From positions 42,546 through 106,545 of the forward strand of contig JAHQIW010000688.1 in NCBI GenBank assembly GCA_019055375.1: DNA of 64,000 bases, written 5' to 3'. Of this stretch, positions 1,006-64,000 are shown piece after piece. The first letter of the stretch is position 1. Every line of letters begins with the position of its first letter. The translations under genes were made by a program, and so were the position numbers. The stretch comes from Parelaphostrongylus tenuis. Its lineage: Eukaryota; Nematoda; Chromadorea; Rhabditida; Metastrongylidae. The notes beneath the pieces were generated by a model. That model searched no databases and was not told the origin of the DNA. It worked only from the letters and a program-made list of their open reading frames with translations.

Positions 1006-1018
1006 AAAAAGCGATCTC
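1006..1018 (+). repeat. 13-bp target-site duplication, left copy
   Basis: AAAAAGCGATCTC here is repeated exactly at 1785-1797. The two copies directly bracket the composite F1 insertion 1019-1784. This is the signature of one insertion event. Confidence 0.85.
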
Positions 1019-1408
1019 AATAGATACTTTGATTATTACTTGAGCCAACTTGTCATGCGGCCTGGTAAGGGGCCCTTGTACAGCCCAATACACGTGTTTC
1101 GTCCTTGCAGACTCGTCAGTCGGGCAGAACCTGTCGTCTTTTGATATTTTTATAGTCAGTTCTCTCGAGAGTTCTGCTCCCTTACAGAGAGTTATCGGAG
1201 ACGAACGTTTCACATTCTATGTCAGGCGGAATTTTCACCCAACACAGAGCGTTTGCGCACTCGATCGCCCTTTGGCTGGTATTTTCATCATATTATGCCT
1301 TCATTTCAAGTGCTTTATCAAGACCACGCTCAAATTTCAATGGATCCTTTCATTATTATTTGAGCCATCTTGTCATGTGGTCTGGTAAGAGCTCTTGTAC
1401 AGCCCTAT
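1019..1408 (-). mobile_element. F1 retrozyme-like unit, inverted half of composite insertion
   Basis: Read on the minus strand, this starts within a few bases of a hammerhead cleavage point (between 1408 and 1407). It continues through the sequence that follows the ribozyme, the conserved GAGCGTGGTCTT block and the unit body, and reaches a complete second hammerhead at 1078-1130. The next cleavage point falls between 1089 and 1088, giving a monomer of 319 nt. No protein is encoded. Length, lack of coding capacity and cleavage-delimited monomers match the retrozyme class (circular-RNA retrotransposons with type I hammerheads). The assignment to that class is inference. Confidence 0.8.
1078..1130 (-). 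ncRNA. Hammerhead ribozyme, F1, core intact
   Basis: On the minus strand the core is complete: CTGACGA, stem II GTC/GAC with a 6-nt loop, GAAA, then ACACGTGTA with cleavage after GTA. Stem I pairs GCCCGA with TTGGGC over six base pairs. Stem III can only form two pairs as a monomer because ACACGTGT is a palindrome with no room for a loop. This is one of the best candidates in the window for a self-cleaving RNA. Confidence 0.85.
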
Positions 1409-1784
1409 ACACTATTGAAATTTGAGCGTGGTCTTAATAAAGCACTCGAAATAGTGGTATAATATGATGAAAATACCAGCCAATGAACAATCGAGTGCGC
1501 AAAGGCTCTGTGTTAGGTGAAAATCTCGCTTGACATAGAGTATAAAGTCCGTCTTCGATAACTCTCTGTAAGGGAGAGGAGCTCCCGAAAGAACTGACTA
1601 TAAAAATTTTGGAAGACGACGGGTTCTGCCCAACTGACGAGTCCGTAAGGACAAAACACGTGTATTGGGCTGTACAATAGTCCTTACCAGACCACATGAC
1701 AAGTTGGCTTGAATATTAATGAAAGGATCTATCAAAATTTGAGCGTGGTCTTAAAAAGCACTCAAAATGAAGGTTTCATGTGAT
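1409..1784 (+). mobile_element. F1 retrozyme-like unit plus start of a second unit
   Basis: The plus-strand partner of the unit at 1019-1408 lies head-to-head with it. The GAGCGTGGTC block at 1424 recurs at 1741, a period of 317 bp, so a full monomer is followed by about 50 bp of a second one. The insertion then stops at the right TSD. There is no coding capacity. Confidence 0.8.
1621..1676 (+). ncRNA. Hammerhead ribozyme, F1, probably inactive
   Basis: CTGACGA is present and stem II is perfect (GTCC/GGAC with loop GTAA). The conserved GAAA reads AAAA, so G12 is lost. Stem I (GCCCAA/TTGGGC) and the GTA triplet remain. Loss of G12 is expected to abolish cleavage. Confidence 0.75.
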
Positions 1785-1797
1785 AAAAAGCGATCTC
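1785..1797 (+). repeat. 13-bp target-site duplication, right copy
   Basis: Exact match to 1006-1018. Confidence 0.85.
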
Positions 1798-2400: not shown

Positions 2401-2659
2401 AAAAGCAGTCTGATAGACCACGGGTTTCTCATATGCTGATGGGCCTTCCAGAGCCACCTATATAAGGGATCATTGAAGTTATTCGTGGAGGTGGGAACTG
2501 CACGAGGTACAAGAAATCATCTCAAGTGCATAGTGAACTAAAACTGACTGCGTAGAACGCATGAAATGATAAAGATTGCTACAATGTATAATGTTCATAG
2601 TTGAGATTGATCGAAAAATTCTCCAGCGACTCCGCTTCGAATATACTGCGACATATCTT

Positions 2660-2820
2660 TATTTCGAGTCTTTCATTAAGTCCACGCTCAAATTTCTATA
2701 TATCTCACAATCATTATTTGAGCCAACATACCATGTGGTCTGTTATGAGCTCTTGTACAGCCCGATACACGTGTTTCGATCCTACAGTCTCGTCAGTCGG
2801 GCGGAACCCCTATTACACAA
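2660..2820 (-). mobile_element. F1 retrozyme fragment, inverted half
   Basis: On the minus strand it contains the hammerhead at 2755-2807, then the CAGACCACATG tail and the GAGCGTGG start of the next monomer. It abuts a plus-strand copy at about 2820, repeating the head-to-head layout of the 1.0-1.8 kb locus. I found no clear TSD. Confidence 0.7.
2755..2807 (-). ncRNA. Hammerhead ribozyme, F1, core residues intact
   Basis: CTGACGA, GAAA and GTA are all present. Stem I pairs GCCCGA with TCGGGC perfectly. Stem II has decayed to about two pairs (GA/TC followed by a C-A mismatch), so activity may be weak. Confidence 0.75.
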
Positions 2821-3080
2821 ATACCACACAAAGAGCATTCGAGTGCACAGCACTGTATGTTAGGAGATATTCTCACTTGACATACAGTGCAAATTGTTCG
2901 TCGTCATTTAACGCTTTATACGGAAGGTAGAGGCCTTCGAGAGGATTGGCTAAAAACTAAAGGCTATGGGTTCTGCACGACTGACGAGACTGGAAGGTCG
3001 AAAGACGTGTATTGGGCTGTACTAGAGCCTATAACAGACCACATGACATGTTGGTTCAATAATAATTATTAGATATATAA
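2820..3080 (+). mobile_element. F1 retrozyme unit, plus-strand half
   Basis: Starts inside the unit body (CATTCGAGTGC, then the TGTATGTTAGGAGAT..TGACATACAGTGCAAA blocks shared with other F1 copies). It runs through a hammerhead and the CAGACCACATGACATGTTGG tail. Confidence 0.7.
2968..3025 (+). ncRNA. Hammerhead ribozyme, F1, decayed
   Basis: CTGACGA, stem II GAC/GTC and GAAA are present. The base after GAAA is G instead of C, which breaks stem III, and stem I carries mismatches (GCACGA against TTGGGC). Probably inactive. Confidence 0.65.
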
Positions 3081-14324: not shown

Positions 14325-14610
14325 ATTTTTGAGCTGTTAGGTCCAGTGCTATAAAGGGGCCTGGTTTCTCTTATTGGGACCCATCTGTAGCACTCTCTCG
14401 GTTCAGCGGACGACTTATTACTCCGAGTTGATTCCTCCACAGAGGATTATTTAGCCCCGAGGGATCGGGTGAACCGAGGGAGGGTGCTACTGACGAGTTC
14501 CGTTAGGACGAAGCAGGCGCCTATATAGCACTAAACCTCACGACTCAGACGTGCTATCCTTATCAAATTACATCGTTTTGAGCGCGTCTATTTAACGCGG
14601 TCGAAAGTAG
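14325..14610 (+). mobile_element. F2 hammerhead element
   Basis: Flanks TTTTGAGCTGTTAGGTC (left) and ATCGTTTTGAGCGCGTCTA (right) match the F2 copy at 50.05-50.25 kb. This copy carries about 100 bp of extra sequence between the left flank and the ribozyme. Confidence 0.65.
14483..14535 (+). ncRNA. Hammerhead ribozyme, F2, nearly complete
   Basis: Stem I is perfect (GTGCTA/TAGCAC) and CTGACGA is intact. Stem II is GTTCC/GGAC with one extra T. GAAA reads GAAG, so A15.1 is lost. Stem III is built on AGGCGCCT. Probably inactive, but close to the family ancestor. Confidence 0.7.
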
Positions 14611-21850: not shown

Positions 21851-24474
21851 ATTTTTTATTGAATTTTGGACTATAAGTCGACCACTATGTAGCATTCTCA
21901 TCATTCTCAGTAGGAGTTGATAATTCTAAAGTTTAAATTTCCTCATAGGAGGGTTTCAGCATAGGAGGACGTGGATTCCGCAAGTAGCAAGATGATATCA
22001 ACTACCTCAAAAATTCTTTATCTGGAAACAGAAAGAACATGCACAGTAGACGTTAAATATTTCATTTCATATCATTCCAGAGCATTTACTAAGGATATCC
22101 TGTTGTCAGGCTTATGTCTCACTTTTTGTCTTACTCCGATCTATACTGATAACTTTTGAACCAGACTTTTGCTTCGTATCACATCAGTGTATATTATTCC
22201 AGAACTCGAAATTATCGTCAGTGTTTGCACTTTATGGAGTGTTTCCATGCCAGAAATTTCGTGAAGGACTTATGTCAGAATCATCTTTCGCAACCATGAT
22301 ATATCCGTAACTATGCTTATTTAGGGTACGATTTTCCAGTACATAAAACTCAAATGTTCCACTTGCTTTTGCCTCCTGAAAGTTCAAATAGATATCATAG
22401 ATACAAACTATAACAAATTTTCCATTTTCTGCAAAGATCATTGATAAAGCACGAAACATTTGACACTCAACACTTATTCGCGGGTGACGTCGCTCTGATA
22501 GCCTTTTGACTATTTCAAGGCTTTCGGGCTCGCAAATGGCTCAAAAAAATCAAAATCTTCTAATGCATGTCATTAACTAGATTTTGCTACTTCAGAGCAT
22601 AGGGTAATGAAGTGAGGTGCATGTCAAATGTACAATGACAATGAGTTGTTTGAAGGCCACCTGGACAAAACCCAGTGAATGCACGAATTCCTACATCAAG
22701 GTCCCTGCTTTCTGATTTTGACATTCTCTTAAATGGAAAAAATTTTGGTGGCAAAAAAAAACCTTGCAAAAGCCTATATTGATCGACATAAAACAAAATC
22801 CAGCTTTTACTACAAAACGCTCTTGTAATAAGTTTCCATAAATAAGAAATAGTAATAGTCAAGCTTCTTCTTATTAGCCTTTCACATTTAGCGCGCTTAT
22901 GAATTATCATCTGTTTATGGTGAGGTTTGCGTATGAGCAAATTTAGATCATCTTCAGATGTGTACTGAAGGGCTTAGAAGAAGGCAATGAATGAAATCGC
23001 ATTGAGAATCCACTACTATATGGAAGCAAAGGAGTAATTGTACTAGAAAATGGTTATGGAAAGAATCGCATGAAGTCATCAGGTGTTGTCCTGTGATAAA
23101 ATAGTCCTACACTTATAGGATGGATGATGGATGAAAAGCAACTGTAGAAGCCGCTGAAAATTCATAGAAAGTAACGCTGAGCAAAGCTTTCCTGCTAACT
23201 TTGTCAAACGCTTTACGTTTCTCATTAAGGTGGGTTTTTATGAAGCGGTCCCAGTTCTTAACAAATTCTAATCGATGTGCAGAACAAACGAAATCTTACA
23301 GTATATTTCATATAACAAAGTTTCATTTCGTTTCTGCAGAGGTCGCCAACTCTTCAGTGGCATGGCTCAATCTTTAAATGTCCTGAAGAGGTCACCTGAA
23401 AAATCCGAGGTGCTGCTTTGCAAAATAAGCATTTAATTCGACTATTTCAATATTCTAGGCTCTTAAAGTATTTCAAAAATCAGTATTGTAGGCTCTCAAA
23501 GTATCCCGAGAAATTTCATGAAAAACAGAGCTTCACAACAAACACTGCTGCCTCACAAGAATGAGAAGTTGCATGTATGTTTAGAGAGTCTGTAGTTGAT
23601 CTTTTCTGCGATTTAATACGTCAGTGCTTTAGTACGGGTCGACGGTCTCGCCCGCTAGGTCTCATTAGAGCCACCCGCCCCAGCAGCCGCACTACTTAAT
23701 GGGGAAGGTGGGACACAGTATATTAAGACCTCACAACAAGAAATGTTACTCGGAGTTTTTTACTGTCCATAAAAAATCTCGAGAAAGCTTGAAATCACCC
23801 TCTCTGAAATTATGGATGTTCTGAAACCAGGTCTCAAAGAACAGTTTGTTATCAGGTTTCAACATCCTACGTCCACTATTCCCTATTAAGAGAGTGATCA
23901 GAGGGAGGAGGAGGGAGAGGGATGAAGGGGGGGGGGGAGGGGCTTGTGACTTTGAAGGAGACTGTCGAAACGCACGTAGGCCATTTACCACATGATGGAA
24001 ATAACGTTAATTTTGTGAGTGGCAAACGGCGAGATCGCGCGACGAGCGCAAGACGTTGCGATGTGGATGTGAAAGTTATCTGATGAGCTTTGGATTGTTG
24101 TCGTCACTGAATGTAATTTCGTCGAAACCAGATGGAAAAAATCTGGTAGAAAAGATTTCGATAAGCTATCTGTAGTAGAAGCAAAAGCGATGCTTATTCG
24201 TAAGATTATTCAAGTTGAAGGCGAAATACTAACGCAAACGTGGTATCTTGAACTGCTATTGAACATTTCTATACTATCTTATCCATATTCATTCGTATTG
24301 TAATCATATTAATCTTTTACTTTGTATTTCAAAGACATTTCGCCTGTTCATTGCAGCAAATGAATACTAATCAGATAATCAATTGCTTCATCAGTTTATT
24401 CTTCTGAAATTAAAAATTACGATGGAAATGCTTTCGGTGCCTTTACATTAGAGTGCTTTTATAGATTTGGCTCA

Positions 24475-24660
24475 AAACAATATATGATCTGATAACATAT
24501 CACCCTTCATAGGATCTCTTATGGTACTTATAAAATGCGAGACACGTGTTCTAGCGATATAGTCTTATCAGCAGTGCGGTGGCTGTCGGTTCAGTCAATT
24601 TTTTCTGAGGGGATAAGCCCTCTAGATATAAAGGAACAGACTTCGAATTGCTAGTTTGAG
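24475..24660 (-). repeat. F3 hammerhead relic in left arm
   Basis: The minus strand reads CTGATAAG, then AGAACACGTGTCTCGC and the tail CATAAGAGATCCTATGAAG. The core residues have changed (CTGATAA, GAAC). Mirrored at 34,905-35,092. Confidence 0.5.
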
Positions 24661-24825
24661 GAAAAACTTTCTCAACACCAACGAGAAATCTAAATGTTAT
24701 GTTTGTTTACAAAGTATCGATTATTGTAAATACATGAGAATATCCAGAAATATTTCCATACAAAAAACTCCCACGGCAACGCTAGATAAGATGAGTCTAC
24801 GATGCGTTGAAGGAAAAGTAACCAA

Positions 24826-25160
24826 CAAGGATTCGTTGGAAGCGCGCCTTGTTTCAGCAAAACAATGGTAAACCTCGCTTTACAACGAAGACTAAAGAGA
24901 AGTTTGACGAACTGGAGGAAGTCAAAGTGTTGCCGCACTCAGCCTGCAGTCCATGTACCGTGCTGCCTGATTGCGGTCTTTCCCTCTCAATAGAACTATT
25001 CCTGCGTGACCGCCGATTTGAGACATTTGATCAAGTTGAAGAGGCTTTTCAGTAATTTTTTAATTCGAAGCCCAAGGAACGGTATTTCGAGCACACCCGA
25101 GTGCTCGCAGATCGTTGGCAGAAGATCGTGGATAATGATAATCTTTATTGCGCAGAATGA
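24826..25160 (+). pseudogene. Mariner transposase remnant, C-terminal part
   Basis: Encodes FQQNNGKPRFTTKTKEKF, then VLPHSACSP, and after one stop a stretch ending RWQKIVDNDN. This order matches the C-terminal third of mariner-family DDE transposases, which carry a QDNARPH-like catalytic block, an LPHPxYSPDLxPxDY block and RWxxVIDxxGxYF near the end. The catalytic D of the first block is replaced (QQNN), and an in-frame stop follows EEAFQ. The N-terminal two thirds and the element ends are not recognisable. A related remnant lies at 62.3-62.46 kb. Confidence 0.75.
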
Positions 25161-25324
25161 CTATTGTTGTTTTCAATTTAATGTATGTATAAACTTCGAG
25201 TCTTCAGCGGACGTTAAGGAACCTTTTCCTCAACCTAATAATGGACCTTTCGCAGCGTTGTTGCACGGGCAGCAGGCAACCCGGGATAAAAATGGGTCGT
25301 GTCGTGTCAACGCTCAACTCAAGC

Positions 25325-25510
25325 TTGGGAGCTTAGCCTAGTGGAAGCGATGTCCGTCAAAACTCAGCCCGGAATTGATCCCCGTCATCCTCTTCGCCCC
25401 CCTCCTTTTTCACACTTCTTGGCAGGAGCCAAGCTATCCTCGTGATTACAAGAAAGCGTTCTCAACCAACATTCTGCGACATTCCATAAAACGTCGGAAA
25501 GCGAATAGAA
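25325..25510 (+). repeat. SINE-B copy in left arm
   Basis: Box-A-like TTAGCCTAGTGGAAGCG and box-B-like GGAATTGATCC are followed by the SINE-B body (CCAAGCTATCCTCGTGATTAC, then CAACCAACATTCTGCGACATT). Related copies lie at 14.1, 30.4 and 48.7 kb. Confidence 0.6.
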
Positions 25511-26195
25511 AGCTATAAGTACTAAGATCGGAATTAGTAGCGGATATTTGGCAGTTTATTGAGAGGAGGAGACTAAAATTACGGAAAACGATGCAACATA
25601 GTTCCTTCTGCAATTCTAACACAAAAAATCTAAAAATATCTATAAAACGAAGAAAAATCTATACATGGGTGAACTGAAGGGATACTACTGATGTGGCGTG
25701 CGAGAACTTCGAAACCTACGTATATTACTAAAGATGTCATACCACATCTCTAAAGGCTTAAAAATTCTATTAGACTATACTTAGTTTTGAGCGAGGTTTC
25801 AAATACAGTCTATAAGATTTGGTTTTTTTTCCTTTTAGTACTTCAAATCAGGTATTGCCCGTTGAAATATTTTCGATAGTTGTTTCTGCTTTTGTTAATT
25901 GCTGCTGTGTAGAACCTTTCAAGCACCTAAGCGAACAGGAAAGCTGCCAGAAGCCGTAGCTGATAGCTCTTATTTAGATAAGAATAGTTCGACATTGTGC
26001 GCTGCTACGTGTCCTTTCCAAACGGCCGTGTGAGTTTTGAGTGAGAGAGATGATGGGTTCATGAGTGGATTTGGAGTATTTGAACAACATTCATTTAAAT
26101 GCTCGCAACAGTGAGATATCTTGTGCATCGGCCGAAATTCACTGTACCGGTACATTGTCGTACTGAGAGAGTAAGGAAAATACTAAGGCAGGGTG

Positions 26196-27621: not shown

Positions 27622-27738
27622 TAGGTATCTTATACCTTTCGTTTCGAGTGTTTTTTTACGACCACGCTCAAATTCAAAGATATCTCGTAATTATTATTTG
27701 AGCCAACTTGTCATGTGGTCTGTTAAAATGGGCTACTG
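27622..27738 (-). mobile_element. F1 fragment, inverted leader of tandem dimer
   Basis: The reverse complement runs from the ribozyme's 3' arm (AGCCCATTTTAACAGACCAC) through the CTCAAATAATAATTACGAG and GAGCGTGGTC blocks to ACTCGAAACGAAAGGTATAAG. The same kind of truncated inverted leader stands before the main copies at 1.4 and 49.2 kb. Confidence 0.7.
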
Positions 27739-27741
27739 ATA

Positions 27742-27803
27742 GAGCCCGACACAACATTATATGAGTCCGTTAAGGTCGAAACACTTGTATAGGGCTTTAT
27801 AAG
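27742..27803 (+). ncRNA. Hammerhead ribozyme relic, F1 dimer, first
   Basis: GAAA, ACACTTGTA and stem I (GCCC/GGGC) remain. The CTGATGA block reads TATATGA and extra bases lie between stem I and the core. Inactive as written. Confidence 0.6.
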
Positions 27804-28059
27804 TCAGCCCATTTCAACAGACCACATGACATTAGGCCAAATAATGATTACGAGATATGTTTAAATTTGAGCGTGGTCTTGAGAAAACAATCAAAACGAA
27901 AGGTATGATATACTGACGATACCAGACAGGAGCAACCTAGTGTACAACGCTGTCTATTCAATGATAATTTCACTTGACATACATTGTAAAACAATCGTCG
28001 TCACCTACTCTTAATATAAAGGGACTGAACGCCTCGAGAGGACTAGGTAAAGTTGAAGG

Positions 28060-28120
28060 GTACTGCCCGGACTGGTGAGACGTCAAGGCGGAAATCGTCA
28101 ATGGTATCGGGCTCTATAAG
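28060..28120 (+). ncRNA. Hammerhead ribozyme relic, F1 dimer, second
   Basis: Stem I is strong (GCCCGG/ATCGGGC). CTGGTGA replaces CTGATGA (A6 lost), and stem III is enlarged. Inactive as written. Confidence 0.6.
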
Positions 28121-28567
28121 TCAGCCCATTTTAACAAACCGCATGACATGTTGGCTCATATAATAATCACGATATGTGTCTAAGAATTTACAAGGATTGC
28201 AAAGTGTTTTTTTTCAAGAAAGTACTCAACAAGTTTGATAATGTGATCTCGATAATGCCATGTTGGTACTACATATTGAAAAACCGTGCATGTGAGTTAT
28301 ATGTAAAAGTCGTAGATTGTAGAATTTGTTTTTTCGATTCACGTTAATACCGTATAGTTTGAAAATGTGCGCAATAACTACGGGAATTGCGTTGCTCTCG
28401 CAAGGATATGGTTTTCGTGTTGTAAAGTAGAAATATCTAGGACAGGATAAACACTGTTCGATCCATTCATTGCTCGATGGTCTATTACTTTTAGATAGAC
28501 ATAAGCCGGAAAGATGCACAGTTTATTTCATATATTGCATTGTTGACTTCTCGTTCTAGGCGACCGT

Positions 28568-33345: not shown

Positions 33346-34066
33346 GAATCAAATGGCTTGCTGAGCGACGAACACCCTGCCTTAGTATTTTCCTTACTCT
33401 CTCAGTACGACAATGTACCGGTACAGTGAATTTCGGCCGATGCACAAGATATCTCACTGTTGCGAGCATTTAAATGAATGTTGTTCAAATACTCCAAATC
33501 CACTCATGAACCCATCATCTCTCTCACTCAAAACTCACACGGCCGTTTGGAAAGGACACGTAGCAGCGCACAATGTCGAACTATTCTTATCTAAATAAGA
33601 GCTATCAGCTACGGCTTCTGGCAGCTTTCCTGTTCGCTTAGGTGCTTGAAAGGTTCTACACAGCAGCAATTAACAAAAGCAGAAACAACTATCGAAAATA
33701 TTTCAACGGGCAATACCTGATTTGAAGTACTAAAAGGAAAAAAAACCAAATCTTATAGACTGTATTTGAAACCTCGCTCAAAACTAAGTATAGTCTAATA
33801 GAATTTTTAAGCCTTTAGAGATGTGGTATGACATCTTTAGTAATATACGTAGGTTTCGAAGTTCTCGCACGCCACATCAGTAGTATCCCTTCAGTTCACC
33901 CATGTATAGATTTTTCTTCGTTTTATAGATATTTTTAGATTTTTTGTGTTAGAATTGCAGAAGGAACTATGTTGCATCGTTTTCCGTAATTTTAGTCTCC
34001 TCCTCTCAATAAACTGCCAAATATCCGCTACTAATTCCGATCTTAGTACTTATAGCTTTCTATTCG

Positions 34067-34242
34067 CTTTCCGACGTTTTATGGAATGTCGCAGAATGTT
34101 GGTTGAGAACGCTTTCTTGTAATCACGAGGATAGCTTGGCTCCTGCCAAGAAGTGTGAAAAAGGAGGGGGCGAAGAGGATGACGGGGATCAATTCCGGGC
34201 TGAGTTTTGACGGACATCGCTTCCACTAGGCTAAGCTCCCAA
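34067..34242 (-). repeat. SINE-B copy in right arm
   Basis: Mirror of 25,325-25,500. Confidence 0.6.
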
Positions 34243-34406
34243 GCTTGAGTTGAGCGTTGACACGACACGACCCATTTTTATCCCGGGTTGCCTGCTGCCC
34301 GTGCAACAACGCTGCGAAAGGTCCATTATTAGGTTGAGGAAAAGGTTCCTTAACGTCCGCTGAAGACTCGAAGTTTATACATACATTAAATTGAAAACAA
34401 CAATAG

Positions 34407-34741
34407 TCATTCTGCGCAATAAAGATTATCATTATCCACGATCTTCTGCCAACGATCTGCGAGCACTCGGGTGTGCTCGAAATACCGTTCCTTGGGCTTC
34501 GAATTAAAAAATTACTGAAAAGCCTCTTCAACTTGATCAAATGTCTCAAATCGGCGGTCACGCAGGAATAGTTCTATTGAGAGGAAAGACCGCAATCAGG
34601 CAGCACGGTACATGGACTGCAGGCTGAGTGCGGCAACACTTTGACTTCCTCCAGTTCGTCAAACTTCTCTTTAGTCTTCGTTGTAAAGCGAGGTTTACCA
34701 TTGTTTTGCTGAAACAAGGCGCGCTTCCAACGAATCCTTGT
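34407..34741 (-). pseudogene. Mariner transposase remnant, right arm
   Basis: Mirror of 24,826-25,160 with the same QQNN change and the same stop. The damage therefore predates the arm duplication. Confidence 0.75.
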
Positions 34742-34904
34742 TGGTTACTTTTCCTTCAACGCATCGTAGACTCATCTTATCTAGCGTTGCCGTGGGAGTT
34801 TTTGTATGGAAATATTTCTGGATATTCTCATGTATTTACAATAATCGATACTTTGTAAACAAACATAACATTTAGATTTCTCGTTGGTGTTGAGAAAGTT
34901 TTTC

Positions 34905-35092
34905 CTCAAACTAGCAATTCGAAGTCTGTTCCTTTATATCTAGAGGGCTTATCCCCTCAGAAAAAATTGACTGAACCGACAGCCACCGCACTGCTGATAA
35001 GACTATATCGCTAGAACACGTGTCTCGCATTTTATAAGTACCATAAGAGATCCTATGAAGGGTGATATGTTATCAGATCATATATTGTTTTG
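34905..35092 (+). repeat. F3 hammerhead relic in right arm
   Basis: Mirror of 24,475-24,660. Confidence 0.5.
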
Positions 35093-36939
35093 AGCCAAAT
35101 CTATAAAAGCACTCTAATGTAAAGGCACCGAAAGCATTTCCATCGTAATTTTTAATTTCAGAAGAATAAACTGATGAAGCAATTGATTATCTGATTAGTA
35201 TTCATTTGCTGCAATGAACAGGCGAAATGTCTTTGAAATACAAAGTAAAAGATTAATATGATTACAATACGAATGAATATGGATAAGATAGTATAGAAAT
35301 GTTCAATAGCAGTTCAAGATACCACGTTTGCGTTAGTATTTCGCCTTCAACTTGAATAATCTTACGAATAAGCATCGCTTTTGCTTCTACTACAGATAGC
35401 TTATCGAAATCTTTTCTACCAGATTTTTTCCATCTGGTTTCGACGAAATTACATTCAGTGACGACAACAATCCAAAGCTCATCAGATAACTTTCACATCC
35501 ACATCGCAACGTCTTGCGCTCGTCGCGCGATCTCGCCGTTTGCCACTCACAAAATTAACGTTATTTCCATCATGTGGTAAATGGCCTACGTGCGTTTCGA
35601 CAGTCTCCTTCAAAGTCACAAGCCCTCCCCCCCCCCCCCTTCATCCCTCTCCCTCCTCCTCCCTCTGATCACTCTCTTAATAGGGAATAGTGGACGTAGG
35701 ATGTTGAAACCTGATAACAAACTGTTCTTTGAGACCTGGTTTCAGAACATCCATAATTTCAGAGAGGGTGATTTCAAGCTTTCTCGAGATTTTTATGGAC
35801 AGTAAAAAACTCCGAGTAACATTTCTTGTTGTGAGGTCTTAATATACTGTGTCCCACCTTCCCATTAAGTAGTGCGGCTGCTGGGGCGGGTGGCTCTAAT
35901 GAGACCTAGCGGGCGAGACCGTCGACCCGTACTAAAGCACTGACGTATTAAATCGCAGAAAAGATCAACTACAGACTCTCTAAACATACATGCAACTTCT
36001 CATTCTTGTGAGGCAGCAGTGTTTGTTGTGAAGCTCTGTTTTTCATGAAATTTCTCGGGATACTTTGAGAGCCTACAATACTGATTTTTGAAATACTTTA
36101 AGAGCCTAGAATATTGAAATAGTCGAATTAAATGCTTATTTTGCAAAGCAGCACCTCGGATTTTTCAGGTGACCTCTTCAGGACATTTAAAGATTGAGCC
36201 ATGCCACTGAAGAGTTGGCGACCTCTGCAGAAACGAAATGAAACTTTGTTATATGAAATATACTGTAAGATTTCGTTTGTTCTGCACATCGATTAGAATT
36301 TGTTAAGAACTGGGACCGCTTCATAAAAACCCACCTTAATGAGAAACGTAAAGCGTTGACAAAGTTAGCAGGAAAGCTTTTGCTCAGCGTTACTTTCTAT
36401 GAATTTTCAGCGGCTTCTACAGTTGCTTTTCATCCATCATCCATCCTATAAGTGTAGGACTATTTTATCACAGGACAACACCTGATGACTTCATGCGATT
36501 CTTTTCCATAACCATTTTCTAGTACAATTACTCCTTTGCTTCCATATAGTAGTGGATTCTCAATGCGATTTCATTCATTGCCTTCTTCTAAGCCCTTCAG
36601 TACACATCTGAAGATGATCTAAATTTGCTCATACGCAAACCTCACCATAAACAGATGATAATTCATAAGCGCGCTAAATGTGAAAGGCTAGTAAGAAGAA
36701 GCTTGACTATTACTGTTTCTTATTTATGGAAACTTATTACAAGAGCGTTTTGTAGTAAAAGCTGGATTTTGTTTTATGTCGATCAATATAGGCTTTTGCA
36801 AGGTTTTTTTTTGCCACCAAAATTTTTTCCATTCAAGAGAATGTCAAAATCAGAAAGCACGGACCTTGATTGCAGTGATTAGTAGTCGATTGATCAAGAT
36901 TGCTTGTCGTCGAATTCTTGTGTGAGGATGTTTTTGCAC

Positions 36940-49173: not shown

Positions 49174-49185
49174 AAAAATAGTTGT
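49174..49185 (+). repeat. 12-bp target-site duplication, left copy
   Basis: AAAAATAGTTGT is repeated exactly at 49,619-49,630. The two copies bracket the F1 insertion 49,186-49,618. Confidence 0.85.
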
Positions 49186-49618
49186 ACCTTTCCTTCGAGT
49201 GCTTTATTAAGACCAACGCTCAATTTCAATAGATCCTTTCATTATTATTTGAGCCAACATGTCATGTGGTCTGGTAAGGGCTCTGTATGAAAGGATCTAT
49301 TGAAATTTGAGCGTGGTCTTAATAAAGCACTCGAAGAAAGGTATAATATGATAAAAATACCAGCCAGCTAGCAATCGAGTGCGAAAACACTCTGTGTTAG
49401 GTGAATGTTCACCTGACATAGAGTGTAAAGCGTAGGTCGTCGATAACTATATATGAAGGAGTGTGACGCTCCCGAGAGAACTGACTATGAAAAGATCGAC
49501 AGACGCGGGTTCTGCCCGGCTGATGAGTCTGTAAGTACGAAACACGTGTCTCGGGCTGTACAAGAGCCCTTACCAGACCACATGACATGTTGGCTCAAAT
49601 AATAATGAAAGGATTTAC
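49186..49618 (+). mobile_element. F1 retrozyme-like insertion, complete
   Basis: The 433-bp insertion starts with an inverted, truncated leader (49,186-about 49,284) that is the reverse complement of the unit's end and start. One full plus-strand unit of about 318 bp follows (ATGAAAGGAT at 49,287 recurs at 49,605). It contains the GAGCGTGGTCTT block, the body and a hammerhead, and ends at GGATTTAC. There is no coding capacity. Exact 12-bp TSDs and intact ribozyme residues suggest a fairly young copy. Confidence 0.85.
49509..49562 (+). ncRNA. Hammerhead ribozyme, F1, core intact
   Basis: CTGATGA, GAAA and a GTC cleavage triplet (the optimal triplet) are all present. Stem I pairs GCCCGG with TCGGGC. 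Stem II (GTC..TAC) has a mismatch at its third pair. Stem III again uses the palindrome ACACGTGT. Confidence 0.8.
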
Positions 49619-49630
49619 AAAAATAGTTGT
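49619..49630 (+). repeat. 12-bp target-site duplication, right copy
   Basis: Exact match to 49,174-49,185. Confidence 0.85.
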
Positions 49631-55885: not shown

Positions 55886-55933
55886 CATACAGAAAGGCTG
55901 ATTTGATAGTTTTTGAGATTTGTTACTGAAACG

Positions 55934-55945
55934 ATTACCACCACT
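55934..55945 (+). repeat. 12-bp target-site duplication of PLE, left copy
   Basis: ATTACCACCACT is repeated at 58,921-58,932, exactly where the plus-strand PLE copy ends. Confidence 0.85.
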
Positions 55946-56111
55946 CGAAAGACCGACTTTCTTGAAACCTCGGCATGTTAATAATATAAACCTTTGAAAA
56001 TGATAAGAAAAGCTTAGGAAACTAATCTTTATTTAGAGCTTCACGAGGTTGGTATCTTCTTCCCAATCGATTGTTCTTCTTTCCGGTCGATGGGTTTTCG
56101 CGTTTGCTTGT

Positions 56112-56147
56112 GGCTGACGTTTCGGCGAATACGCCTTCTTCAGAGCC
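56112..56147 (-). ncRNA. PLE minimal hammerhead ribozyme, minus copy
   Basis: Same sequence as 58,762-58,797 on the other strand: CTGAAGA, stem II GGCG/CGCC with a 4-nt loop, GAAA, CGTC, and stem I GGCT/AGCC. Confidence 0.75.
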
Positions 56148-56383
56148 TGAACGTATCAGTCGTTGTAAAGCTATTTATATGACTATATACTGTGGAGAAA
56201 AACATCAATAATAAATAAATAAATTGAAAATCTACGGCGTTTATAAGCGATAACCAATTCGGGAAAACCACTCACCTTACCATCTAATCCAGGGACTACC
56301 TATGTTGCTAGCGCCAGGGTGACGTATGAGCCCGCCCCCGTGTCACTAGGTCAAATTATGGATAGGTGCCACTGAGACCCACG

Positions 56384-57350
56384 CTAGAAAATCAATCTGA
56401 GGTAAGGTGCCATGTGGTTGGTTATGTTAAGGCACTCGCCCTTTTTGTTCATTTGCGGGTTTCTGGAATTTATCCAGAAAGCTTCAAGGGTCTTTCGCGC
56501 CGATGTTTTTGGTTCGTGCCCTAAGATTTTGACTACTACCTCGAAGTCGTCATCGTTGTGCCTTTGCATCCTGTGTGTGCCTAGAGGTTTACTTGGGTCT
56601 TTATTTGCTTTTTCCGTCTAGGTGTTCTTTAATGCGGATGTGAAGTGGTCTGCCTGTTTCGCCCAATATATTCGCCACCACATGTCATACAAGAGATAAG
56701 GTATATTGTACCTACGCTCATGCAATCGCCGTCTCTACCGTTGGGACAAATAACGCAGTCCTTTGTATTACATAGACGGTTATACAAGCGGTTTCGAACT
56801 AATTGACGACGCAGTGTTTTTGGCGGAATTTCAACAATTCCTACAGAATCTTCTAGACCACTGATTTTTAGACACTTTCTAATAGCGGTACTGACTTCGT
56901 CTGTTATGAAAGGTAGTTTAAGAGGTACCTTATTGTTTAGGTGTGGCGCCCTGTCGTTCTCAGTGCGAGGCATTTTCGCTCCTTTTGGGCCTAACGTTAG
57001 TTTTTGTTTTTTCTTTGTACCCATTAGAATGGCTATTTTTCGCGCTAAGTCTAGTGTTTCCCTTCTTTCATCGTCTCCCGTACAAACACAGCTGTTCGAT
57101 ACATATTTCGGATAAGTGCCTTTTTAGTATGTGAGGGATGGGAAGAAAGGTATTGTACCAAGATGTTTTTGTTACTAGGCTTGCGATACCATTCTGTGCT
57201 ATAGCCACTTTCATTACATGTTGAACTTGACGTTCAGAGAAGGGGAAGCCAGCTCTCTGAATTTTGTTGTTCTCGCGTCAACTTAATAAACTCTGACTGT
57301 CCGTTCAGGATTCGAAATACTTGTCATCTCTTTCTCCATCCATCTGTGTC
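56384..57350 (-). pseudogene. PLE polyprotein remnant, minus copy
   Basis: Encodes the C-terminal part of a PLE protein: the spacer after the RT, a Cys cluster (CNTKDCVICPNG), the GIY-YIG endonuclease start (GTIYLISC, then GEYIG) and the C-terminal endonuclease helix (LEAFWINSRN). One extra base just after GEYIG shifts the frame, so the protein is split into two readings (56,629-57,024 and 56,384-56,569). More breaks occur towards 57.3 kb, and the RT core is missing. Endonuclease-bearing PLEs use this domain to nick the target. Confidence 0.85.
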
Positions 57351-57401
57351 CTTTCTGTATGTATTTCAGCCATCTGTCTGGAACAGAAAAATGTACGATT
57401 T

Positions 57402-58527
57402 GTTGAATATCAATAGCAGTGATGTCTTCACGACATTATATCTTGAAACAACTGGAAAGGACCGACTTTGTTCGAAACTCGCGCATGCAACAAATGGAGT
57501 GCTCAGTTGCTTCTCATCAGCGTCCAATACTCTACTGTCGATATATAGACGATTGCTTTATCATCTGCTCTACACAAGAGGAGATGGATAAATGCATTCG
57601 AAATTTAGAACGGACAGTCAGAGTTTATAAGTTGACGCGAGAACAGAAAATTCACAGAGCTGGCTTCCCTTCTTGAACGTCCAAGTTCAACTTAATGAAA
57701 GTGGCTATAGCACAAAATGGTATCGCAAGCCTAGTACATAAAAACATTTGAGTACATTACCTTTCTTCCCATCCCTCACATACTAAAAAGGCACTTATCC
57801 GAAATATGTATCGAACAGCTGTAAGTGTTTGTACGGGAGACGATGAAAGAAGGAATCACTAGACTTAGCGCGAAAAATAGCCATTTCTAATGGGTACAAA
57901 GAAAGAACAACAACTAACGTTAGGCCCAAAAGGAGCGAAAAGCCTCGCAATGGGAACGACAGGGCGCCACACCTAAACAATAAGGTACCTCTTAAACTAC
58001 CTTTCATAACAGACGAAGTCAGTACCGCTATTAGAAAGTGTCTGAAAAACAGTGGTCTAGAAGATTCTGTAGGAATTGTAGAAATTCCGCCCAAAACACT
58101 GCGTCGTCAATTAGTTCGAAACCGCTGTATAACCGTCTATGTAATACAAAGGACTGCGTTATTTGTCCCAACGGTAGAGACGGCGATTGCATGAGCGTAG
58201 GTACAATATACCTTATCTCTTGTAATGACATGTGGTGGCGAATATATTGGCGAAACAGGCAGACCACTTCACATCCGCATTAAAGAACACCTAGACGGAA
58301 AAAGAAATAAAGACCCAAGTAAACCTCTAGGTACACACAGGATGCAAAGGCACAACGATGACGACTTCGAGGTAGTAGTCAAAATCTTAGGGCACGAACC
58401 AAAAACATCGGCGCGAAAGACCCTTGAAGCTTTCTGGATAAATTCCAGAAACCCGCAAATGAACAAAAAGGGCGAGTGCCTTAACATAACCAACCACATG
58501 GCACCTTATCTCAGATTGATTTTCTAG
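57402..58527 (+). pseudogene. PLE polyprotein remnant, plus copy: RT end and GIY-YIG
   Basis: Begins inside the reverse transcriptase. The catalytic YIDD box sits in CRYIDDCFIIC (about 57,535-57,570), followed by a frame shift and a KWYRKPS-like block typical after the RT core. The endonuclease part runs from LPFITDEVSTAIRKCL through the Cys cluster to MTCGGEYIGETGRPLHIRIK, and ends LEAFWINSRNPQMN and a stop at 58,527. An extra base just before MTCGG, and stops around 57.67-57.87 kb, break it. The GIY-YIG Arg (RIKEH) and Glu (LEAFW) are present. The breaks differ from those in the minus copy. Both are dead, but the family was intact recently. Confidence 0.88.
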
Positions 58528-58761
58528 CGTGGGTCTCAGTGGCACCTATCCATAATTTGACCTAGTGACACGGGGGCGGGCTCATACGTCACCCTGGCGC
58601 TAGCAACATAGGTAGTCCCTGGATTAGATGGTAAGGTGAGTGGTTTCCCGAATTAGTTATCGCTTATCAACACCGTAGATTTTCAATTTATTTATTTTTA
58701 TTGTTTTTCTTCCCCACAGTATATAGTCATATAAATAGCTTTACAACGACTGATACGTTCA

Positions 58762-58797
58762 GGCTCTGAAGAAGGCGTATTCGCCGAAACGTCAGCC
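58762..58797 (+). ncRNA. PLE minimal hammerhead ribozyme, plus copy
   Basis: Stem I GGCT/AGCC, CTGAAGA, one extra A, stem II GGCG/CGCC with loop TATT, GAAA, then CGTC. Stem III is only the palindrome ACGT with no loop. PLE 3' regions are known to carry minimal hammerheads that are thought to work as dimers. The position in the PLE 3' region fits that knowledge. Confidence 0.78.
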
Positions 58798-58920
58798 ACA
58801 AGCAGACGCGAAAAACCCATCGACCGGAAAGAAGAACAATCGATTGGGGAAGAAGATACCAACCTCGTGAAGCTCTAAATAAAGGATTAGTTTCCTAAGC
58901 TTTTCTTATCATTTTCAAAG

Positions 58921-58932
58921 ATTACCACCACT
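58921..58932 (+). repeat. 12-bp target-site duplication of PLE, right copy
   Basis: Exact match to 55,934-55,945. Confidence 0.85.
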
Positions 58933-59126
58933 GTCGTTTCTGCTATAATTCTCAACAAATCTGTCATTTTTTAGCTGAAGCGCTTTTGTGGAGAAACACA
59001 TTATTCGTTATATGCGTCACACTTTAGCAACCAGATCATCGCATTGGGATGCTATACTCGTAAGGGACTTCTCAGCTTTTGAAAAGCAACATGAGAGACT
59101 ACTATCTCATTTAAAATATCATCCCG

Positions 59127-59164
59127 TTCGTTTCGAGTGTTTCCTAAGACCACGCTCAAATTGC
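59127..59164 (-). repeat. F1 fragment
   Basis: The reverse complement AATTTGAGCGTGGTCTTAGG then AAACACTCGAAACG is the start block of the F1 unit. The rest is missing. Confidence 0.65.
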
Positions 59165-60099
59165 AGCACTGTATGGGTGCCCAAAACAGACCCATGCATG
59201 ACTCACAAATAACTACCAGGGATATCATACTTGACTATAAATCTTTCGTCATTTCTCTAGAACTCGGAAAAAATTGTCATTGTTGCAGCATTGTTATTAA
59301 CTGTATGACACAGCGCCCTAGTACTGTCGGTAAAATGACTGGAAGATCGAAAACTGTCAGAGGCACACCATTGCTACCTGGTACGGCAAAAAAAGCTTTC
59401 CTCAATATCTACCTTCTCTTCAAATTTTTTCACAGCACAATTCTCTTTGGGATCAATTCGGTATTCGCCGAAACCTTCGCATCTGCGTAAAGAGTTGATT
59501 GCAATCTTAGATGTGTGCCGCCCTGATTCTTCTAAATTTCTATAGCACGAGCAGAGATTTTCATTTTGTTGCCCTTCATGGATCGAAAGGAGCTAATGCT
59601 AGAGTGGACTGGTGTAAGTTTGCCTGGTTGACCTAATGATCAAACCAGTGATTATGCTTTTACTTAACATCTTTGAATGAGTTTAAACCCACACTATTCT
59701 TGGAATATCAACAGATCAAACTTGCTGAGCGAGATCAGCGCGAACTACATCCACTGAGACTTAATGGATTAATTGAGTCATTTTCATTATAAGTCCACCA
59801 CTTCTCAAATAAGTCACATAATTAAGCTATCAAGGACTGGAGCTAAGGGCGATTCCGGCAGTGATAATCCAATATTAGAATTTCAACACATTATACTATA
59901 ATATATTGATCTATCTATTTACACAAGTCATCATCGCACACACAGTGCGGTTCTTTCTCAAATCAAAACTTTCCTAATAAATTTCCTCGCATTCCTCCTC
60001 ACTTCCTCGTATATTCATTTTCGCATATTGCGCGTGCTCTCTCGGCTACTGCCTGAGAATTTAGTCTTTTTCTGAGAAAGTCTTGAAGTATTAATCTTG

Positions 60100-63794: not shown

Positions 63795-64000
63795 TTATGG
63801 ATGTCAATAAATCCTTCCATTATTATTCGAGCCAACATGTCATGTGGTCTGGTAAGGGCTCTTGTACAGCCCGATACATGTGTTTCGTGCTTACAGACTC
63901 GTCACTCGCGGCAGAACCCGTCGTCTTTTCGATCTTTCTATCGTTCAGTTCTCTCGGGAGCCCTTCCTCTCGCTACAGAGAGTTATCGAACGACGTTTTA
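63795..64000 (-). mobile_element. F1 retrozyme unit, cut by window end
   Basis: The minus strand carries the F1 body (GATAACTCTCTGTAGCGAG, then GGGCTCCCGAGAGAACTGA), a hammerhead and the CCAGACCACATGACATGTTGG tail ending AATGGAAGGATTT. The start of the unit lies beyond base 64,000. Confidence 0.8.
63863..63917 (-). ncRNA. Hammerhead ribozyme, F1, one core change
   Basis: GAAA, ACACATGTA and the stem II GTC..CAC region remain. CTGACGA reads GTGACGA (C3 to G), and stem I has an extra base (GCCGCGA against TCGGGC). Probably inactive. Confidence 0.7.

What the first reader, a model, noticed from the sequence alone, without database searches (positions are those of the whole stretch)
1019..1784. 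Hammerhead retrozyme composite in a nematode, with exact 13-bp TSD
Two F1 units lie head-to-head, each with a type I hammerhead, and are bracketed by AAAAAGCGATCTC at 1006-1018 and 1785-1797. The whole 766-bp palindromic structure therefore inserted once. The monomer is 317-319 nt by two independent measures: cleavage to cleavage on the minus strand, and repeat period on the plus strand. Small non-coding elements with hammerheads and circular RNA intermediates (retrozymes) are known from plants and some animals. I cannot tell whether this nematode family has been described.
Basis: partly seen in the sequence, partly recalled or inferred. Interest (0 to 1): 0.93.

Follow-up and report, generated by a model that had tools for sequence, protein, structure and literature searches.

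The report
Hammerhead retrozymes with Penelope insertion marks
A likely roundworm genome carries short non-coding elements with a predicted self-cutting RNA motif whose two favoured end points, back-to-back arms and roughly 12-letter target duplications match those of Penelope elements in the same genome, so a Penelope-type copying enzyme likely spreads them, which would answer the open question of what moves such RNA parasites.

Summary
In detail: 1019-1784 is one palindromic insertion between exact 13-bp repeats, with a type I hammerhead motif on each strand. Corrections: the plus-strand motif has a broken core (GAAA to AAAA) and the inner minus-strand cut site lacks its ribozyme, so this copy should not release a monomer. 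F1 is a dispersed family; a second family (F2, 284-285 nt) is built the same way. New is the architecture. In the F1 (31) and F2 (26) elements mapped, most outer ends fall at two places on the monomer circle about 50 nt apart (S and T). Two-armed copies are head-to-head (43 of 43) and, where both ends are classed, pair S with T (33 of 35). Clear target duplications are mostly 12-13 bp in F1 (11 of 16). Young Penelope-like elements (PLEs) of the same genome match: 10 of 10 readable composites, tail 44 nt. Published work shows a PLE enzyme extending both target strands from two adjacent internal RNA sites, a signature called unique to PLEs. So a PLE-type enzyme most likely mobilises these retrozymes, as proposed in 2020 from coexistence. 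Circular RNA, cleavage and trans-mobilisation are untested. F1/F2 and PLE tails are not significantly similar in sequence. Species unknown; named PLE relatives are nematodes.

The parts
1006..1018 (.). left target site duplication AAAAAGCGATCTC
   Evidence: exact 13-bp repeat
1019..1413 (-). minus arm of the F1 element (395 nt, about 1.2 monomers); outer end at 1019 is the short (S) end, circle coordinate about 74
1083..1125 (-). type I hammerhead, intact core, predicted cut between 1089 and 1088
   Evidence: Rfam RF00163 31.0 bits, E 0.0011, sub-gathering
1413..1414 (.). head-to-head junction of the two arms
1414..1784 (+). plus arm of the F1 element (371 nt); outer end at 1784 is the tail (T) end, circle coordinate about 126
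1619..1675 (+). type I hammerhead with broken core (GAAA to AAAA); cut-like position 1664/1665
1785..1797 (.). right target site duplication AAAAAGCGATCTC
2657..3066 (.). second, older F1-like head-to-head composite with a hammerhead-like core on each strand (2796- and 2981+); no exact target duplication established
49174..49630 (.). third F1 composite 49186-49618 between exact 12-bp repeats AAAAATAGTTGT (49174-49185, 49619-49630); hammerhead 49514-49556(+), 30.3 bits (sub-gathering); left end T, right end S
55933..58932 (.). Penelope-like element with the same layout: 13-bp repeats GATTACCACCACT (55933-55945, 58920-58932), head-to-head arms 55946-57306 and 57608-58919 with a spacer between, left arm 43 nt longer (tail)
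56112..56147 (-). minimal PLE-type hammerhead of the left arm
   Evidence: type named from recall and from passages
58762..58797 (+). minimal PLE-type hammerhead of the right arm
58201..58524 (+). GIY-YIG endonuclease piece of the PLE
   Evidence: Pfam PF01541 26.6 bits, cut-off 22.6
57407..57673 (+). reverse transcriptase piece of the PLE (YIDDC)
   Evidence: Pfam RVT_1 25.5 bits, below the 29.6 cut-off

Best explanation
The 766-bp element at 1019-1784 is one insertion of a 317-319-nt hammerhead element (family F1) made of two opposite arms between exact 13-bp target duplications, and it was likely written into the genome by a Penelope-type reverse transcriptase/endonuclease that would have started on F1 RNA, likely a circle, at two fixed sites about 50 nt apart, one for each target strand. 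Proposed steps: (1) tandem F1 copies are transcribed and the type I hammerhead would cut the RNA into monomers that a host ligase would close (inferred, as in published retrozymes). (2) A PLE-type enzyme cuts the two target strands about 12 nt apart (stagger inferred from the duplications). (3) Each freed 3' end primes a cDNA, one from the S site and one from the T site, which can run once or more round the template (the ends and the tandem units are shown; the priming is inferred). (4) The two cDNAs meet head-to-head at a variable junction, and gap filling makes the duplications. The two arms need not come from one RNA molecule.
For: Two favoured ends: F1 S end median 66.5 (range 60-74, n=20) and T end median 116.5 (103-133, n=32), counted from the predicted ribozyme cut; F2 composites S end 42 (39-58, n=15) and T end 93 (74-100, n=17). 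PLE S and T ends lie 76 and 120 nt after its predicted cut, tail 44 nt; in 30 PLE loci 13 end at T, 15 at S (one of them, L083, by string) and 2 elsewhere. Orientation: composites are head-to-head in 25 of 25 F1 and 18 of 18 F2 and in the 10 PLE composites read. With a query that does not reach the ends, 3 of 3 opposite pairs on one contig are also minus-then-plus. S+T pairing: 20 of 21 F1, 13 of 14 F2, 10 of 10 PLE, among composites with both ends classed; 4 F1 and 4 F2 composites have an unclassed end. Duplications: F1 16 of 31 above the 99th percentile of 300 mispaired flanks, 12-13 bp in 11 of the 16; F2 13 of 26, 8-20 bp, mode 12; PLE 10 of 10 at 12-14 bp, all above the null maximum. [quoted passage not shown] head-to-head pLTRs with an optional 31-bp tail are described as the usual PLE form (PMC3846280). 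PLEs are abundant and often open here: 150 matches from 150 candidates scored of 22,282, open frames up to 978 aa. Ribozyme: core intact in 37 of 57 F1 and 32 of 45 F2 units found, compensatory pairs (F1 stem II T-A 47, A-T 5, G-C 2; F2 stem III T-A 24, C-G 13).
Against: The tails of F1 and F2 are not significantly like the PLE tails in sequence (p 0.16-0.46), and the F1/F2 end motif was seen in only 1 of 30 PLE loci by pattern and in 2 by eye, there as part of an attached F2 unit, so the enzyme family is not pinned down. A hairpin around the S site is not above shuffles in either PLE family and is marginal in F1/F2 (p 0.058 and 0.015). The tested PLE enzyme showed no difference in start site between the two strands, so it does not by itself explain S+T pairing. 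No RNA, circle or cleavage was observed. 15 of 31 F1 and 13 of 26 F2 elements gave no clear duplication. The F1 sample was picked with a query covering the T end, and the S/T windows were set after seeing the data. F1 and F2 tails are related, so they are not fully independent families. Ribozyme units were found by similarity, which favours intact ones; one F2 stem II pair reads as paired in 20 of 45 because of a gap placement.
Confidence: 0.77

Rival explanations
1. PLE-type mobilisation of linear multimeric F1 transcripts: the template is an unprocessed tandem transcript, not a circle, and the ribozyme plays another part.
For: In vitro a PLE inserts unprocessed RNA and ribozyme mutants do not affect insertion (PMC11167929). 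Some direct tandem units within one element differ as much as units of different loci: L045 90.8%, L049 91.9%, one pair in L035 90.9%, against a between-locus mean of 91.1%.
Against: Other tandem units are identical or nearly so: L044 100%, L042 98.9%, L021 99.3% (each other's nearest relative), L016 98.6-100% (nearest or second nearest) (rank lines), as repeated rounds on one circle would give. The hammerhead is kept with compensatory changes in both families.
Confidence: 0.28
2. Snap-back self-priming: a cDNA or an antisense RNA folds back on itself and makes the inverted arm (the inference drawn for PLEs in PMC3846280).
For: Head-to-head palindromes are common in PLEs and were read this way. 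Four of 25 F1 composites have inner coordinates within 10 nt of each other.
Against: A fold-back gives arms that start at nearly the same place and are equal at birth. Inner coordinates differ by more than 20 nt in 21 of 25 F1 and 17 of 18 F2 composites. The opposite arm is the nearest relative in 2 of 16 F1 and 3 of 4 F2 comparisons (rank lines). In PLE L086 one arm shares up to 6 rare variants with another locus and 1 with its own opposite arm. It also does not predict one S and one T outer end.
Confidence: 0.1
3. A foldback or MITE-like DNA transposon with terminal inverted repeats that happens to contain a hammerhead.
For: Inverted ends and target duplications of nearly constant length in F1.
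Against: The two ends are not mirror images (about 50 nt offset), centres vary, arms contain 1 to over 2 tandem monomers, and 6 of 31 F1 elements have one orientation only.
Confidence: 0.03
4. A satellite or an assembly or amplification artefact that made inverted chimaeras.
For: Whole-genome amplification can make inverted chimaeras (recalled, no call).
Against: Arms in the window element differ by about 15%, ends cluster at two places, and target duplications flank the whole unit.
Confidence: 0.02

Closest known systems
Metazoan non-LTR retrozymes (Cervera and de la Pena 2020, PMC7229834)
   Same: type I hammerhead, 170-400-nt non-coding monomer, low GC, tandem copies, target duplications longer than 4 bp, PLEs in the same genome
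   Different: described as direct tandem repeats; the parts read (1-4 of 6) mention no head-to-head rule, no two fixed ends and no nematode; who mobilises them was left open, with PLEs as strong candidates
Penelope-like elements with GIY-YIG endonuclease (PMC3846280, PMC11167929)
   Same: head-to-head inverted copies, optional tail at one end, two internal start sites, both strands used, hammerhead near the start sites, short target duplications
   Different: PLEs encode RT and endonuclease and carry a minimal hammerhead; F1/F2 encode nothing and have a longer stem III; duplications here are 12-14 bp in the PLE composites read against 8-10 bp in the rotifer passages read
Schistosoma mansoni W-elements and Sm-alpha
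   Same: hammerhead-bearing non-coding repeats in a helminth (passages of PMC8490949; figure legend of PMC6155905)
   Different: a flatworm, satellite-like; sequences not compared here
Plant LTR retrozymes
   Same: non-autonomous element with hammerhead and circular RNA
   Different: type III hammerhead, 600-800-nt circles, LTRs and 4-bp duplications

Membership tests
Metazoan non-LTR retrozyme | type I hammerhead with intact core | tested here: met
   window copy 31.0 bits, below the 34-bit gathering score; F2 copies up to 45.8 bits; core intact in 37 of 57 F1 and 32 of 45 F2 units
Metazoan non-LTR retrozyme | monomer of about 170-400 nt in tandem | tested here: met
   317-319 nt F1; 284-285 nt F2, four tandem cut sites in L016
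Metazoan non-LTR retrozyme | GC below 50%, no long coding frame | tested here: met
   GC 42.2%; no stop-to-stop frame of 120 aa or more over the element, longest 114 aa
Metazoan non-LTR retrozyme | target duplications longer than 4 bp | tested here: met
   13 bp in the window; 16 of 31 F1 elements clear, mode 12 bp
Metazoan non-LTR retrozyme | circular RNA in tissue and self-cleavage in vitro | not testable with these tools
   no RNA data or bench work
PLE-type integration (works like) | two discrete 3' ends a tail length apart | tested here: met
   F1 about 50 nt, F2 about 51 nt between medians; PLE-A 44 nt; PLE-B in the window 43 nt
PLE-type integration (works like) | head-to-head inverted copies between short target duplications | tested here: met
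   25 of 25 F1, 18 of 18 F2, 10 of 10 PLE composites read; duplications
PLE-type integration (works like) | recognition sequence shared with a resident PLE | tested here: not met
   tail alignments p 0.16-0.46; only two PLE families of the genome were compared
Penelope-like element (is a) | encodes RT and GIY-YIG endonuclease | tested here: not met
   no long coding frame in the F1 element
MITE or foldback DNA transposon | mirror-image terminal inverted repeats with a fixed centre | tested here: not met
   ends offset by about 50 nt and variable centres

The most novel reading that the evidence does not exclude
Hammerhead retrozymes are parasites of Penelope-like elements that copy the Penelope two-site start signal: a two-headed Penelope complex loads two template RNAs, starts one cDNA at the S site and the other at the T site, and uses both cut target strands as primers, so that nearly every new copy is born as a head-to-head pair from two RNA molecules.
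Probability: 0.45. Interest if true: 0.82.

Novelty: new variant of a known kind. Interest (0 to 1): 0.7.

Why it matters
What mobilises animal hammerhead retrozymes has been an open question; PLEs were proposed because the two coexist and both carry type I hammerheads. Here two retrozyme families, with different bodies but related tails, carry the end geometry that biochemistry has tied to PLE reverse transcription. The question becomes directly testable: give a PLE protein F1 RNA and look for starts at two predicted positions. The data also add a regularity for PLEs themselves: composites join one S-start cDNA to one T-start cDNA (43 of 45 F1, F2 and PLE composites with both ends classed), and at least one PLE composite and several F1 composites look as if their arms come from different templates. 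That bears on how PLEs insert, which is still unresolved.

Tried and rejected
Rejected: the mirror-hairpin or self-priming origin as the general rule (junction coordinates; arm relationships); a DNA transposon (end offset, variable centres); an assembly artefact. Tested and not supported: a shared sequence between PLE and F1/F2 tails, although F1 and F2 tails are alike (p 0.00025, 4000 shuffles) and the two PLE tails are alike (same p); a conserved hairpin round the S site; folds of five single copies gave z-scores from -1.39 to 0.63, none significant. The cross-family alignment A1 put the two families out of register in the loop and was not used for pair counts. The summary lines undercount 'mate is nearest' (a boolean sum); figures here are read from its rank lines. 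Rows dropped or adjusted: L004 (same palindrome as L003) and L006 (overlaps L005) were left out; 3 of 31 Rfam matches were not fetched; the F1 boundaries of L039 and L040 for the duplication test were set from the short arms; the other F1 copies of the window (2657-3066, 27627-28169, 63801-63995) were not in the counts; PLE loci L059, L062, L066, L071, L077 and L085 show opposite arms or fragments but were not counted as composites (ends unclear, cut by the locus edge, or joined to an F2 unit); the ends of L082 and L083 were set by string match because a T-run broke the BLAST match; the minus arm of L081 matched only positions 50-103. Literature: no nematode retrozyme was found in the held library with retrozyme+nematode, hammerhead ribozyme+nematode+retrotransposon, Penelope-like+hammerhead+nematode or hammerhead ribozyme+strongyl, judged from the listings; retrozyme+head-to-head+inverted+metazoan (two terms or more, 12 of 7,276 listed) showed no paper with both retrozyme and head-to-head among those listed. 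Most subscription papers are not held, and PMC4209133, PMC2941103 and PMC8557442 could not be read.

Full report
What is in the window. The element at 1019-1784 lies between exact copies of AAAAAGCGATCTC. It is a minus arm (1413 down to 1019) joined head-to-head to a plus arm (1414 up to 1784). The monomer is 317-319 nt. A type I hammerhead lies on the minus strand at 1083-1125 (31.0 bits, below the gathering score of 34). The plus-strand copy has lost the G of GAAA. The second minus-strand cut-like site at 1408/1407 has no ribozyme core, because the junction cut it off. So the copy is real but, as it stands, should not release a monomer. Two further composites in the window have the same form, at 2657-3066 and at 49186-49618; the latter has exact 12-bp repeats.

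The family. The genome that holds the window has 481.5 Mb in 5105 contigs. A search with the plus arm gave 75 matches from the 40 candidates scored of 6062 found. I mapped the 30 fetched loci (one of them the window element itself) and the 49-kb copy onto the monomer circle, numbered from the base after the predicted cut. 25 of 31 have two arms, all head-to-head; 6 have one orientation. Of 56 3' outer ends 52 sit in two narrow places: S at 60-74 (20 ends) and T at 103-133 (32 ends). In 20 composites one end is S and the other T; one is T+T; four pair T with an end elsewhere. The F1 query covered the T region, so F1 is not an unbiased sample of ends.

A second family. The Rfam hammerhead model found 31 matches in the genome. 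Of these 28 were fetched and 26 kept. They belong to another family, F2: 284-285 nt, with stem I GUGCUA/UAGCAC and a longer stem III, and four tandem cut sites in L016. This sample was picked by the ribozyme alone. It shows the same layout: 18 composites, all head-to-head, S end 39-58, T end 74-100, 13 composites S+T, one S+S, four with an unclassed end; 8 elements show one orientation. The tails of F1 and F2 are alike in sequence (p 0.00025), so the two families are related at that end.

Target duplications. With mispaired flanks as the null, 16 of 31 F1 elements (12-13 bp in 11 of the 16) and 13 of 26 F2 elements (8-20 bp, mode 12) exceed the 99th percentile. One mispaired F2 pair of 400 reached 10.8, so single F2 cases near that score are not safe.

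The Penelope link. The window holds a Penelope-like element at 55946-58919. It has pieces matching GIY-YIG (above cut-off) and RVT_1 (below cut-off), minimal hammerheads on both arms, head-to-head arms, a 13-bp duplication and a 43-nt longer left arm. Eight protein relatives with E up to 0.001 were found; the four with names are from nematodes. A search of the genome with one of them (P0001) gave 150 matches from the 150 candidates scored of 22,282, with open frames up to 978 aa. Read by eye from that table, 13 pairs of opposite matches lie within 5 kb on one contig, each minus-then-plus; four of these pairs are among the composites below. Of 30 fetched PLE loci 13 end at T, 15 at S and 2 elsewhere; S and T are 44 nt apart. 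The 10 composites whose two ends I could read are all S+T with 12-14 bp duplications, all above the null maximum.

How it likely works. Frangieh et al. 2024 (PMC11167929; parts 1-3 of 4 read) purified an anole PLE. [quoted passage not shown] the protein is predicted to be a dimer. Arkhipova et al. 2013 (PMC3846280; part 1 of 5 and passages) describe head-to-head pLTRs with an optional 31-bp tail and 8-10 bp duplications. F1 and F2 fit this pattern and are non-coding, so a PLE-type enzyme acting in trans is the simplest reading. Cervera and de la Pena 2020 (PMC7229834; parts 1-4 of 6) proposed PLEs as candidates from coexistence. I add the insertion geometry. That the S and T ends are start sites is inferred from this match.

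What the arms say. Opposite F1 arms are each other's nearest relative in 2 of 16 comparisons (8 arm pairs from 7 loci, rank lines). The window's own arms are among the least alike pairs (85.7%). In F2 it is 3 of 4 (2 pairs). Of 10 PLE arm pairs compared, L082/L083 share 7 rare variants, L069 2, L079/L080 1 (they are identical over 880 nt, but so is another locus), L086 1, and six pairs share none. In L086 one arm shares up to 6 rare variants with another locus. So some composites look like one template (or one lineage) and some like two. With old copies this test is weak, because private mutations blur it. Inner junctions differ between the arms by more than 20 nt in 21 of 25 F1 and 17 of 18 F2 composites, so fold-back hairpins are not the rule.

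Ribozyme. In 57 F1 units 37 keep the full core, and in 45 F2 units 32 do; units were found by similarity, which favours intact ones. Compensatory pairs occur in F1 stem II and F2 stem III; one F2 stem II pair reads as paired in only 20 of 45 because of where the aligner put a gap. Stem III of F1 is two pairs with a palindromic ACGU loop (read from the sequence); published motifs with short stem III work better as dimers.

Limits. No RNA or protein experiment. Species not identified. Copy number not measured. The PLE family that would serve F1/F2 is not identified, and the two PLE tails compared share no significant sequence with theirs. S and T windows were set after looking at the data. Against equal chances, 43 of 45 mixed pairs has a binomial probability of 2.9e-11, and 23 of 24 for F2 and PLE alone 1.5e-6; these take composites as independent events.

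Noticed in passing
window 55933-58932: Penelope-like element with broken frames, about 1.3-kb head-to-head arms, minimal hammerheads on both arms, 13-bp duplication and a 43-nt tail on one side.
   Followed up: yes
L062:2277-3708 and L066:2276-3708 (as oriented): The PLE 3' end (S end) is joined directly to an F2 unit, and the pair recurs in tandem with a period of about 700 or 980 nt: a PLE-F2 chimaeric repeat, perhaps from template switching.
   Followed up: partly
window 14470-14540: F2-type hammerhead (core variant with GAAG) on the plus strand, core from 14490.
   Followed up: no
L082 and L083 (one composite), L086: A long T-run sits just upstream of the PLE S end in these copies, unlike the other fetched PLE loci; it is shared by both arms of L082/L083.
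   Followed up: partly
window 59110-59165 and 27627-28169: Further F1 end-module fragments and an older rearranged F1 composite.
   Followed up: no
window 22695-26195 and 33373-36870: A long inverted repeat with arms of about 3.5 kb, 99-100% complementary in pieces, about 7.2 kb apart; it looks like a large recent palindromic duplication or element.
   Followed up: partly
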